Assembly: GCA_003241895.1 (NCBI GenBank) | Contig: QBLY01000007.1 | Location: 86,493-150,492 of the forward strand | Reading direction: 5' to 3' | DNA length: 64,000 bases | Source of the DNA: Lysobacteraceae bacterium | GTDB taxonomy: Bacteria; Pseudomonadota; Gammaproteobacteria; Xanthomonadales; Xanthomonadaceae | Part shown: one piece after another, positions 47,519 through 54,742 of the stretch | Layout: each line of letters starts with the position of its first letter | How positions within the stretch are numbered: the stretch's first letter is position 1 | Program-made: the position numbers and the translations under genes | The notes under the pieces: model-generated | Told to the model about the DNA's origin: nothing | What the model saw: only the letters and a program-made list of their open reading frames with translations | Database searches by the model: none

Positions 47519-48553
47519 TCAGCCGCCCGTGTCCGACGTGAGTAGTGCAGCCTTGCGCAGCGCCGGCAAGTCAGCCGAGCCGGTGGCGAAGCAGGCCAGG
47601 CGCAGTCCGTGTTCCAAAGCGGCGAAGTGGGCCAGCAGCGGCTCGATGCCGTCGATGGCAGCCCTGAGCAGCGGCCCGGCCTGGCCGACCAGCTGTGCGC
47701 CCAGCCGTATCGCTTTCGCGGCGTCCAGCCCGTGCCGGATGCCGCCCGAAGCGATCAGCGGCAGGTCCGGCAGCACGGCCCGCACCTGGCGCAGCGCGGT
47801 GGCGGTGGGGATGCCCCAGTCGCGGTACATCTCGGCCATTTGCGCGCGCTGGGCATCGTTGGAAAGCCAGCCCTCCACCGCGCTCCAGCTGGTGCCGCCA
47901 GCGCCCGCCACGTCCACGGCGGCAACGCCGCAGCCCGCGAGCCGTGTCGCCACCGCGCCGGAAATGCCGAAGCCGACCTCCTTTACGATCACCGGCACCG
48001 GCAGCTGCACGCACACCTGTTCGAGCATCGCCAGCAGTCCGCTCCAGCGCGTGTCGCCGTTGGCCTGCAGCGCTTCCTGCAGCGGGTTGAGGTGGATGAT
48101 CAGCGCGTCGGCGCCGATCATGTCCACGGCCCGCTGCATGTGGTCGGGTCCGTACTCGCGCAGCTGGCCGGCACCGACGTTGCCGTACAGCGCCACGTCC
48201 GGCGCTATGCGGCGCAGGCTGCGGTCGGTGCCCTGGAAGCCGCCACCCGACAGCGCCACCCGCTGCGAGCCCACGCCAAGCGCGATGCCCAGCGTCTGCG
48301 CCGCCTCGGCCAGCACGGCGTTGATGCTGGCCGCGTCGTGGTGGCCGCCGGTCATGGAGCTGATCAGGAAAGGCCGGCGCAGCGTCTTGCCGAGGAAGCT
48401 CACCGAAAGGTCGATGTCCTGCAGGTCCACTTCGGGCAGCGCGCAGTGTTCGAAGCGCATCGGGTCGAAACCGGCATCCACGGTGCGGGCGTTGACCGTG
48501 CCCGACAGCACGGCCTCGATATGCCCTTGCTTGCGCTGCGACCACTGGCTCAT
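47519..48553 (-). CDS. fni: Isopentenyl-diphosphate delta-isomerase type 2
   Basis: SSMTGGHHDAASIN; FMN-barrel motifs GGTSWSAVE and ASGGIRHGLDAAKAIRLGA. Confidence 0.94.
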   Translation of the reverse strand: MSQWSQRKQGHIEAVLSGTVNARTVDAGFDPMRFEHCALPEVDLQDIDLSVSFLGKTLRRPFLISSMTGGHHDAASINAVLAEAAQTLGIALGVGSQRVALSGGGFQGTDRSLRRIAPDVALYGNVGAGQLREYGPDHMQRAVDMIGADALIIHLNPLQEALQANGDTRWSGLLAMLEQVCVQLPVPVIVKEVGFGISGAVATRLAGCGVAAVDVAGAGGTSWSAVEGWLSNDAQRAQMAEMYRDWGIPTATALRQVRAVLPDLPLIASGGIRHGLDAAKAIRLGAQLVGQAGPLLRAAIDGIEPLLAHFAALEHGLRLACFATGSADLPALRKAALLTSDTGG

Positions 48554-49449
48554 GAAAGTATTCCTCCCCGTCGCTCCGACAGCATCACCACGATCATGTG
48601 CGGCCAGGTCAGCGCCGCCAGACCGATGAACACGATCCTGACGAGGTGGGTTTCAAGGGTCGCCGCCGAGGCGAGGTTCCCGGCGAGCCACGGCCAGACC
48701 AAGGCGGCGGCCACCAGCGTCAACACGGTGTAGGCGACGGCAACGCCCATCATCCGGCGCCGGTCGCCCGGGTCGGCCGACTGCATGGCGTTACGCAAAT
48801 GCCTGGGGCTGTGCAGCGCGCAGAAATACACCAGGAAAAAAACCAGCGGCGGCAGCAGCAGCGCCAAGGCCCCGACCGCACCCAGTTCGACGGCGGCCGT
48901 CGGCGAGCGCGGCAGGGCCAGCAGGGCCGAGGCGGCCGCAGCCAGCGCAAGCCAAGGTGCGGCGACGCCCAGCCACTCCGCCAGCACGCGCCCCTGTTCT
49001 CCGGAGAGCAGCGCGAAAATCCCGCTCACTTCTTCCGGCGCGGCCCAGGCGGGCAGCGCGAGCAGCGCCAGGCCCGAGACGGCCCGCGCCCACACGTTCA
49101 GTTCCTTCTGCCAATCGCCGCCGAAATGCCAGGCGGAGATCGCCAGGAACAGCGCCAGGCTCGCGCCGGGCGCCAGCTGCCAGAGGGCCAGCACGCCTAC
49201 GGCCAGCGCCACGTAAGCGACGTGGAAGGCGGCGAAACCGAACGGGGTGCGCCAGAGGCCAGCGCGCCACGCCACCCACGGATCCAGCGCGCCGTGCGGC
49301 AGCCCGGTCAGCACCACGGCAATCGCCAGCACCACGACCAGCGCCTGGCTGGACACGGACAGCGAGTCGAGCTGCGCCAGCAGCACCGCCAGGCTGCCCA
49401 GGGCCAGGAACAGCCAGGTTTCCGGCGTTGCCTTGAGGCGCCCGGTCAT
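48550..49449 (-). CDS. blh: Brp/Blh-family beta-carotene 15,15'-dioxygenase
   Basis: GLPHGALDPWVA, SAWHFGGDW, ALHSPRHLRN, LTWPHM conserved His motifs. Confidence 0.94.
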   Translation of the reverse strand: MTGRLKATPETWLFLALGSLAVLLAQLDSLSVSSQALVVVLAIAVVLTGLPHGALDPWVAWRAGLWRTPFGFAAFHVAYVALAVGVLALWQLAPGASLALFLAISAWHFGGDWQKELNVWARAVSGLALLALPAWAAPEEVSGIFALLSGEQGRVLAEWLGVAAPWLALAAAASALLALPRSPTAAVELGAVGALALLLPPLVFFLVYFCALHSPRHLRNAMQSADPGDRRRMMGVAVAYTVLTLVAAALVWPWLAGNLASAATLETHLVRIVFIGLAALTWPHMIVVMLSERRGGILS

Positions 49450-50603
49450 GTCGACGGCCTCGGGCGAAGCGACGGGCCGTGCAGCGCTTGGAGAAACGGT
49501 CCGGGCGGCAAGGCGGCGATGATGCGCGCGTGGTCCCGCCAGCCGCCCTGCTCAGACATGAAGCGAACGAACGCTTCGCCAGGAACCGATGACGCCAGCC
49601 GGAGGAAGAATTCCGGCGACCGCGCCGGGTTGTTGGCCAGCGCACGCAGGAAAACCCGATCCATCCAGCCCTGCACTTTCGGCTCGGCCGGGTGGCCAAC
49701 CGGTGGCCGGCCCTGCAGCAGCTCGCGCGCGCAGCGATCCGCCCACGCCTGGATACGAACGAAGCCAAAGCCGGAAGCGGCCCTCAGCGCCCCCGCGCCC
49801 ATCCCGGCGTGCGCAACGCCGGCGATCGGCTCGGCCACGTCCGGCGCAGGCAAGCCCATGGGCAGCACCGCCGTCTCGGTGCGCAGCACTTGGGCGTTCG
49901 ACCAGCCGCGTGCAGCCAGCGTCTGGTCCAGGTCGGCGCAAAGCTGCGCCTGGCCCAGGGCTCGGGTCGAGAAACGCGTCGCTTCCACCAGCGCGCGGGT
50001 CGGCGACAGCGGCAGTACGTAGGAAAAGACGAAGCCCAGCGCATCCGACCGCATGTCGGTCATCAGCTCAACCCGGCTGTCGTCGAAGCGGGCCTGATCG
50101 AAGCGCAGCTCCCGTCCCGAGAAACACTGGAACAGGGTCGAGCCGGAGAACCGGTCCATCGCGGCGGGCCGGGTATCGACGACGAACGACGTCGGGAACG
50201 TGCCCGCGGTGGTGGCCACCGACAGGTGACCGCCCGACGCGTCCACGGCGTTCGCGCGGGTGCCCATCAGCAGCCTGAAATTCGGACGCGACGCGATCAG
50301 TGCCAAAGCGTTGCGATACAAGTCCAGTGACCGGATATAGGCGTAGCGCCAGCCCGGCGCGCGGCGCGTCACCGGTTCGCCGTCCTGCCGGGAAAACTGC
50401 CAGTGGTTCCACTGTCGCGCAGGCGCTACCGGCAGCGCGTGGTGCGCGGGCGTCCAGAACGCCCAGCTGCGGTCGTCGACGTATTCCCCGCGCGGCTCCA
50501 GGATGACCACGCGACCGGCATAGCCGCCGCGCACCAGCCTGGTGGCCAGCGACAGCCCCGCCAGACCACCGCCGACCACGACCAGGTCCACCGGATCATT
50601 CAT
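49446..50603 (-). CDS. crtY: Lycopene beta-cyclase
   Basis: FAD motif DLVVVGGGLAGLSLA; DDRSWAFW; GMGAGALRAASGFGFVRIQ. Start trimmed to MNDPVDL. Confidence 0.93.
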   Translation of the reverse strand: MNDPVDLVVVGGGLAGLSLATRLVRGGYAGRVVILEPRGEYVDDRSWAFWTPAHHALPVAPARQWNHWQFSRQDGEPVTRRAPGWRYAYIRSLDLYRNALALIASRPNFRLLMGTRANAVDASGGHLSVATTAGTFPTSFVVDTRPAAMDRFSGSTLFQCFSGRELRFDQARFDDSRVELMTDMRSDALGFVFSYVLPLSPTRALVEATRFSTRALGQAQLCADLDQTLAARGWSNAQVLRTETAVLPMGLPAPDVAEPIAGVAHAGMGAGALRAASGFGFVRIQAWADRCARELLQGRPPVGHPAEPKVQGWMDRVFLRALANNPARSPEFFLRLASSVPGEAFVRFMSEQGGWRDHARIIAALPPGPFLQALHGPSLRPRPST

Positions 50604-53932: not shown

Positions 53933-53962
53933 GGGCGGAGCCGCCTGAAAGCGACCCCGCCC
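53933..53962 (-). promoter_or_regulatory. Intercistronic hairpin between rhodopsin and crtE
   Basis: Minus strand GGGCGGGGTCGC-TTTCAG-GCGGCTCCGCCC, 12-bp stem with two G-U pairs, no T tract. Confidence 0.7.
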
Positions 53963-53983
53963 CACGTTTAAACCGCGCAGGCC

Positions 53984-54742
53984 TTAGGCCTTGACGGCGT
54001 CGATCTCGGACTTCCGAACCGCGATGGCGTAAATCACCAGGCCGAAGACGGCCTTCGCAGTGATGTCAGCGATGGTGTAGCCCACTTCGATCACGGCGAT
54101 GGAGGTGCCACCGCTCATGCTCACCACGAACGGCGCGAAGTACACGATCGGGTAGAAGAACCACGACACCACCACCAGGTTGCGTGCAAGGCGGATGAGG
54201 CCGCGGACACCCTCGGGCTGGCGATCAATCGCATCGCCCAAGCTGGTGTACAGCGAGAACACGATATACAGGAACGGCAACATCGACAGAGCGCCGAAGA
54301 TCATCCGGGTGGAGTCGATTCCAGCAGACACCTCGCCCGGGTAACCCAGCAGGATCATCAACGCTGCGGCGCCACCCAGCTTCAGCGACTTCGACACCGT
54401 CTCGGCCTGCGCAAGACGCATGACCAGGATGAGCTCGATCAACAGCAGCGGCACCGTCAGGAGCCAGTCGACGTAGCGATAGGCGCGGTTGAACTCGACG
54501 CCCGTCGTGACAACCACGCCATTGGCGACCTCATAGGCATCGCCCCAGCTGGCGAAGATCCGCCAGTAGTGATAAAGCGCGATGAACGTGACCAGGCCGG
54601 TGACGGTCAGCGCGGTCTTGTAGTGGTGCGAGACTTGCGACCGCCCGAACCAGAAGAACAGTGTTGCAGCTGCAAATGTGGCGATACCGAATGAAAAGGC
54701 GTTATAGACCAGTGAGAACTGGCCTGCGGACAAAGCTTCCAT
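53984..54742 (-). CDS. Proteorhodopsin/xanthorhodopsin-like light-driven proton pump
   Basis: RYVDWLLTVPLLLIE (D92, T96, L100, E103), H58 (ALYHYWRIF), GYTIADITAKAVFG (D226, K230), G150 in STRMIFGALSMLPFLYI. Confidence 0.96.
   Translation of the reverse strand: MEALSAGQFSLVYNAFSFGIATFAAATLFFWFGRSQVSHHYKTALTVTGLVTFIALYHYWRIFASWGDAYEVANGVVVTTGVEFNRAYRYVDWLLTVPLLLIELILVMRLAQAETVSKSLKLGGAAALMILLGYPGEVSAGIDSTRMIFGALSMLPFLYIVFSLYTSLGDAIDRQPEGVRGLIRLARNLVVVSWFFYPIVYFAPFVVSMSGGTSIAVIEVGYTIADITAKAVFGLVIYAIAVRKSEIDAVKA

What the first reader, a model, noticed from the sequence alone, without database searches (positions are those of the whole stretch)
47519..54742. Complete, self-contained retinal phototrophy operon
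Rhodopsin, crtE, crtI, crtB, crtY, blh and type-2 idi lie on one strand in near-pathway order, covering IPP/DMAPP isomerisation through retinal plus the apoprotein. Each family call rests on motifs read here. That these steps suffice for holo-rhodopsin is established for proteorhodopsin systems. Finding it in an apparent Xanthomonadales chromosome is, as far as I know, uncommon; no mobile element flanks it in this window.
Basis: partly seen in the sequence, partly recalled or inferred. Interest (0 to 1): 0.85.

Follow-up and report, generated by a model that had tools for sequence, protein, structure and literature searches.

The report
Xanthorhodopsin phototrophy operon in Arenimonas
A bacterium of the genus Arenimonas carries a complete seven-gene kit to make a light-driven proton pump and its vitamin-A pigment; the kit is a well-known, widely shared one that happens to be uncommon in this bacterial order.

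Summary
Each gene matches its family, and five of the six junctions overlap by 4-8 bp, so this is probably one operon. Two corrections. First, the rhodopsin belongs to the xanthorhodopsin family (best solved relatives psXR, XR, Kin4B8, Gloeobacter rhodopsin, 227-250 bits), not proteorhodopsin (96 bits). It keeps the D92-T96-E103 proton-pump motif, H58, D226 and K230, and a green-type Leu. Second, it has the carotenoid-antenna Gly (G150), but no CrtW or CrtZ was found in the genome, so it probably works without an antenna. The host genus is Arenimonas. The same gene order occurs in Aquimonas, Alphaproteobacteria and others, and XR-crtEIBY-brp operons are published as horizontally moving units. 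In the order it is patchy: 16 of 398 genomes carry a rhodopsin above cut-off. Five of 28 Arenimonas genomes carry one: three XR cassettes and two unrelated PR cassettes. Relatives show the same site (between lnt and an indolepyruvate-ferredoxin-oxidoreductase-like gene) empty. Verdict: a real, intact, ordinary phototrophy cassette; a new member of a known kind. Function is inferred, not measured.

The parts
53984..54742 (-). xanthorhodopsin-family rhodopsin, 252 aa; D92/T96/E103, H58, D226, K230, L100, G150, Y201
   Evidence: Pfam PF01036 134.8 bits; PDB matches psXR 249.8, XR 231.7, Kin4B8 228.3, GR 227.3 bits; residue map
53045..53965 (-). crtE-type polyprenyl (GGPP) synthase; true start somewhere between 53851 and 53965
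   Evidence: PF00348 136.7 bits; start choice 53851 by codon score and by G024/Aquimonas homologues of 268 aa
51537..53048 (-). crtI phytoene desaturase, 503 aa
   Evidence: TIGR02734 569 bits, cut-off 238; the only close CrtI in the genome
50596..51540 (-). crtB phytoene synthase, 314 aa
   Evidence: PF00494 205 bits; best NCBIfam model is phytoene synthase, below its equivalog cut-off; only SQS/PSY gene in the genome
49446..50603 (-). crtY lycopene cyclase, 385 aa
   Evidence: PF05834 168.7 bits; NCBIfam TIGR01790 111.9 bits, below cut-off 209.5
48550..49449 (-). blh beta-carotene 15,15'-dioxygenase, 299 aa
   Evidence: PF15461 145.4 bits; TIGR03753 185.4 bits, cut-off 95.25
47519..48553 (-). 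idi2 type-2 IPP isomerase, 344 aa
   Evidence: TIGR02151 382 bits, cut-off 281.3; single copy in genome
54743..55065 (-). intergenic leader upstream of rhodopsin; the stretch next to the start codon is conserved in the relatives' loci; probable promoter/RBS region
   Evidence: alignment of four loci; sigma-70 consensus scan found no site here, so the promoter is not identified
43344..55065 (.). block present here between an IOR-like gene and lnt but absent at the same site in relative G022; holds a pilT/pilB-like pair plus the cassette
   Evidence: synteny and junction sequences

Best explanation
This is an intact operon for retinal-based phototrophy of the xanthorhodopsin type. Idi2 and the host MEP pathway supply IPP and DMAPP. 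CrtE makes GGPP, CrtB phytoene, CrtI lycopene, CrtY beta-carotene, and Blh cuts beta-carotene to retinal. Retinal binds K230 of the rhodopsin, which pumps protons outward in green light (D92 acceptor with H58, E103 donor) and adds to the proton-motive force. The pump probably runs without a carotenoid antenna in this host. The cassette occupies a variable site between lnt and an indolepyruvate-ferredoxin-oxidoreductase-like gene and is patchy in the genus through gain and/or loss. Shown here: gene content, order, intact frames, key residues, distribution, empty sites. Inferred: enzyme products, pumping, colour, lack of antenna, co-transcription.
For: Family matches of all seven genes. XR-family PDB matches and all pump residues conserved. 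Overlapping genes. Same gene order in many loci. Cassette genes are the genome's only PSY-type gene and only close CrtI. IspH-family gene present. In 28 Arenimonas genomes, close crtI and rhodopsin occur in exactly the same five, as a functional unit would. A related XR operon is judged very likely to encode a functional proton pump and to be horizontally transferred (PMC7701988).
Against: No expression or pumping data. No promoter was found by consensus. CrtE, CrtB and CrtY score below NCBIfam's narrower cut-offs. Loss versus gain at the site is not resolved: the rhodopsin tree has many unsupported forks.
Confidence: 0.93

Rival explanations
1. The rhodopsin works with a bound carotenoid antenna, as in Salinibacter XR or Kin4B8, so the cassette is half of a two-chromophore system.
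For: G150 matches XR G156/Kin4B8 G153 and Y201 matches XR Y207/Kin4B8 Y204, the stated primary criterion and an additional important residue for a carotenoid site (PMC12308411). Positions 205/206 are hydrophobic (F/V), like the keto-carotenoid binders XR and GR rather than the hydroxy-carotenoid binder Kin4B8.
Against: No CrtW or CrtZ in the genome: three PF04116 proteins are weakly OlsE-like, and five PF00487 proteins are mostly fatty-acid desaturase types, with only one weak CrtW hit of 24.7 bits against a cut-off of 350. No CrtO-like second CrtI. Beta-carotene does not bind Kin4B8 (PMC12308411).
Confidence: 0.1
2. The operon was gained recently by this strain's lineage on a mobile element.
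For: Patchy distribution; empty site in G022, other genes there in G020, same-context absence in G027; XR operons move in Tardiphaga (PMC7701988).
Against: Cassette GC (0.69) matches the flanks (0.67-0.71). No integrase, transposase or convincing flanking tRNA. Cassette proteins diverge from G024 (crtI 86%, crtE 69%, crtY 59%) and G009 (crtI 94%, crtE 90%) about as much as the flanking lnt does (58-69% and 90%), which fits older presence with losses. The G024 cassette lies on the same side of lnt.
Confidence: 0.25
3. It is a light sensor, or a pump of another ion, rather than a proton pump.
For: Rhodopsin families include sodium and chloride pumps and sensors (general knowledge; chloride and sodium pumps also appear as weaker PDB matches).
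Against: DTE motif with K230 and H58, not the NDQ or NTQ motifs of sodium and chloride pumps; much closer to XR/GR proton pumps (227-250 bits) than to chloride pumps (about 88) or sodium pumps (about 69); no transducer gene beside it.
Confidence: 0.03

Closest known systems
XR-crtEIBY-brp operon of Tardiphaga (PMC7701988)
   Same: xanthorhodopsin followed by crtE, I, B, Y and the blh/brp cleavage gene, in the same order; linked to horizontal transfer
   Different: type-2 idi added at the 3' end here; different host class; no mobile elements beside it
Aquimonas sp. LLA-2 cassette (L011, JAKOMQ010000021)
   Same: all seven genes in the same order, including idi2; rhodopsin 79%, crtI 78%, idi2 71% identical
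   Different: different genus and flanking genes
Arenimonas MAG cassettes G009 (NZ_JAIBFH010000285) and G024 (NZ_JALHQI010000099)
   Same: rhodopsin 97% and 88% identical, downstream of lnt in the same orientation
   Different: contigs end inside the cassette; G024 has two extra genes between lnt and rhodopsin
Marine proteorhodopsin photosystem cassette (gammaproteobacterial type)
   Same: same pathway logic and genes
   Different: rhodopsin here is XR-family; PR-type cassettes with 32-35% identical rhodopsin occur in two other Arenimonas genomes (G001, G025)

Membership tests
Xanthorhodopsin-family proton pump | closest sequence relatives are XR/GR-type, not PR | tested here: met
   psXR 249.8, XR 231.7, Kin4B8 228.3, GR 227.3 bits; PR 96 bits
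Xanthorhodopsin-family proton pump | retinal Lys, Asp counterions, His partner, DTE motif | tested here: met
   K230, D92, D226, H58, T96, E103
Xanthorhodopsin-family proton pump | light-driven outward proton transport | not testable with these tools
   needs expression and pH assay
Antenna-bearing xanthorhodopsin | Gly at XR 156 and Tyr at XR 207 | tested here: met
   G150, Y201; criterion from PMC12308411
Antenna-bearing xanthorhodopsin | host makes a keto- or hydroxy-carotenoid (CrtW/CrtO or CrtZ) | tested here: not met
   no such enzyme identified; genome 99.65% complete; an unrecognised enzyme is not excluded
Rhodopsin photosystem cassette (rhodopsin + crtEIBY + blh) | all genes present, intact, co-directional and in order | tested here: met
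Rhodopsin photosystem cassette (rhodopsin + crtEIBY + blh) | co-transcription and retinal production | not testable with these tools
   overlapping genes suggest one transcript; not measured
Marine proteorhodopsin proper | rhodopsin falls in the PR clade | tested here: not met
   (scores); in the tree the PR-type rhodopsins of G001, G141 and G146 form a separate clade (100/100)

The most novel reading that the evidence does not exclude
The pump keeps a keto-carotenoid-type antenna site in a host without any recognised ketolase or hydroxylase because it binds a carotenoid made by an unrecognised enzyme or taken up from neighbours.
Probability: 0.07. Interest if true: 0.5.

Novelty: new member of a known kind. 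Interest (0 to 1): 0.22.

Why it matters
It adds an intact xanthorhodopsin cassette to a bacterial order seldom noted for phototrophy. It gives a clean presence/absence series at one chromosomal site in Arenimonas, where two unrelated rhodopsin types (XR and PR) have each entered the genus, useful for studying gain and loss of phototrophy. It is not a new kind of system.

Tried and rejected
Proteorhodopsin identity: rejected by score and tree. CrtZ/CrtW antenna enzymes: not found. Sigma-70 promoter upstream of rhodopsin: none found. Rfam elements: none in window. tRNA-Cys at 55647-55739: lies inside the lnt reading frame, so probably a false positive and not an integration site. Plasmid origin of the pil pair: only short 77-80% matches. 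Papers linking rhodopsin to Arenimonas, or xanthorhodopsin to Xanthomonadales: none relevant in the held library; the broader Xanthomonadaceae and Xanthomonadales searches showed nothing relevant in the listed titles and abstracts, which I did not read further. L166 gave a very long branch in the rhodopsin tree and was ignored. Two first attempts failed on a wrong crtY start.

Full report
What is there. On the - strand, 47519-54742 holds seven intact genes in the order rhodopsin, crtE, crtI, crtB, crtY, blh, idi2. CrtI, Blh and Idi2 pass NCBIfam curated cut-offs. CrtE, CrtB and CrtY pass Pfam cut-offs but not the narrower NCBIfam scores, so their exact products are inferred from family and context. 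Five of the six junctions overlap by 4-8 bp, which strongly suggests one transcript. The crtE start is uncertain (53851-53965); homologues of 268 aa favour 53851.

The rhodopsin. Its best solved relatives are psXR (249.8 bits), xanthorhodopsin 3DDL (231.7), Kin4B8 (228.3) and Gloeobacter rhodopsin (227.3); green proteorhodopsin scores 96. Aligned to these it keeps the Schiff-base lysine K230, counterions D92 and D226, H58, T96 and the proton donor E103, with Leu at the green/blue tuning position. It should be an outward proton pump for green light (inference from established knowledge of the family). Over 7,700 relatives were found in the large protein set, the nearest 97% identical, and one at 88% is named in NCBI as bacteriorhodopsin-like of Arenimonas sp..

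Antenna. G150 and Y201 match the glycine and tyrosine that mark carotenoid sites in XR and Kin4B8 (PMC12308411). The residues that bind 3-hydroxy carotenoids in Kin4B8 (Ser208, Tyr209) are F205 and V206 here, as in keto-carotenoid binders where this position is hydrophobic. The genome has no identifiable CrtW, CrtO or CrtZ. I infer the pump works without an antenna, at moderate confidence.

Pathway supply. The cassette holds the only SQS/PSY-family gene, the only close CrtI and the only type-2 idi. An IspH-family gene is present elsewhere, so idi2 probably balances or boosts IPP/DMAPP rather than being essential. Two other polyprenyl synthases exist, presumably for housekeeping.

Host and distribution. 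Nearest named loci are Arenimonas MAGs, so the window is from Arenimonas or a close sister (Lysobacteraceae). In 28 genomes of the genus, five carry both a rhodopsin and a close crtI: this one, G009 and G024 with XR-type, and G001 and G025 with PR-type rhodopsins of 32-35% identity and a crtE-I-B-Y-blh set (split over two contigs in G025). In the order, 18 of 398 sampled genomes (8 of 98 genera) match the rhodopsin family, 16 of them over cut-off, mostly in one other family where the XR-crtEIBY-blh order recurs. All seven genes in the same order also occur in Aquimonas, BAL199, a Rhizobiales MAG and UBA7415.

The site. Here the cassette and a pilT/pilB-like pair lie between lnt and an indolepyruvate-ferredoxin-oxidoreductase-like gene. 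In G022 these two genes are 87 bp apart, and the sequence just upstream of the oxidoreductase gene, including a TATAAT box, is shared with the window. In G020 three small unrelated genes sit there. G027 has the same lnt-side genes as G024 but no cassette. So it is a variable site with clear empty versions. The cassette's GC matches its flanks, and its divergence from G009 and G024 is similar to that of lnt, which argues against a very recent arrival; the trees do not settle gain versus loss. In the rhodopsin tree a MAG labelled Pseudoxanthomonas groups with the window and G009 (95/93), to the exclusion of G024, which hints at transfer between genera or at a mislabelled MAG.

Verdict. XR-crtEIBY-brp operons are published (PMC7701988). 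This is a new member of a known kind, uncommon in its order.

Noticed in passing
43344-47518: A pilT-like and a PilB/GspE-like ATPase (with MshEN and c-di-GMP motif matches) between the cassette and the IOR-like gene; GC 0.64 against about 0.69 around it; the best match in any other Arenimonas genome is about 39% identical. Looks like a separately acquired pair.
   Followed up: partly
L121, L122, L123 (G001, G025): Two other Arenimonas genomes carry a PR-type rhodopsin with crtE-I-B-Y-blh, so the genus has taken up two unrelated rhodopsin types.
   Followed up: partly
55066-57519: lnt-like protein of 817 aa, longer than the NCBIfam lnt model covers (match ends at 472), with an unexplained C-terminal part; found in only 10 of 28 genus genomes.
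   Followed up: no
55647-55739: ARAGORN calls tRNA-Cys on the - strand inside the lnt frame; probably a false positive.
   Followed up: no
L012 and L013: Identical XR rhodopsins (with crtY and blh hits of the same identity) in MAGs labelled Alphaproteobacteria and Betaproteobacteria; binning error or very recent transfer.
   Followed up: no
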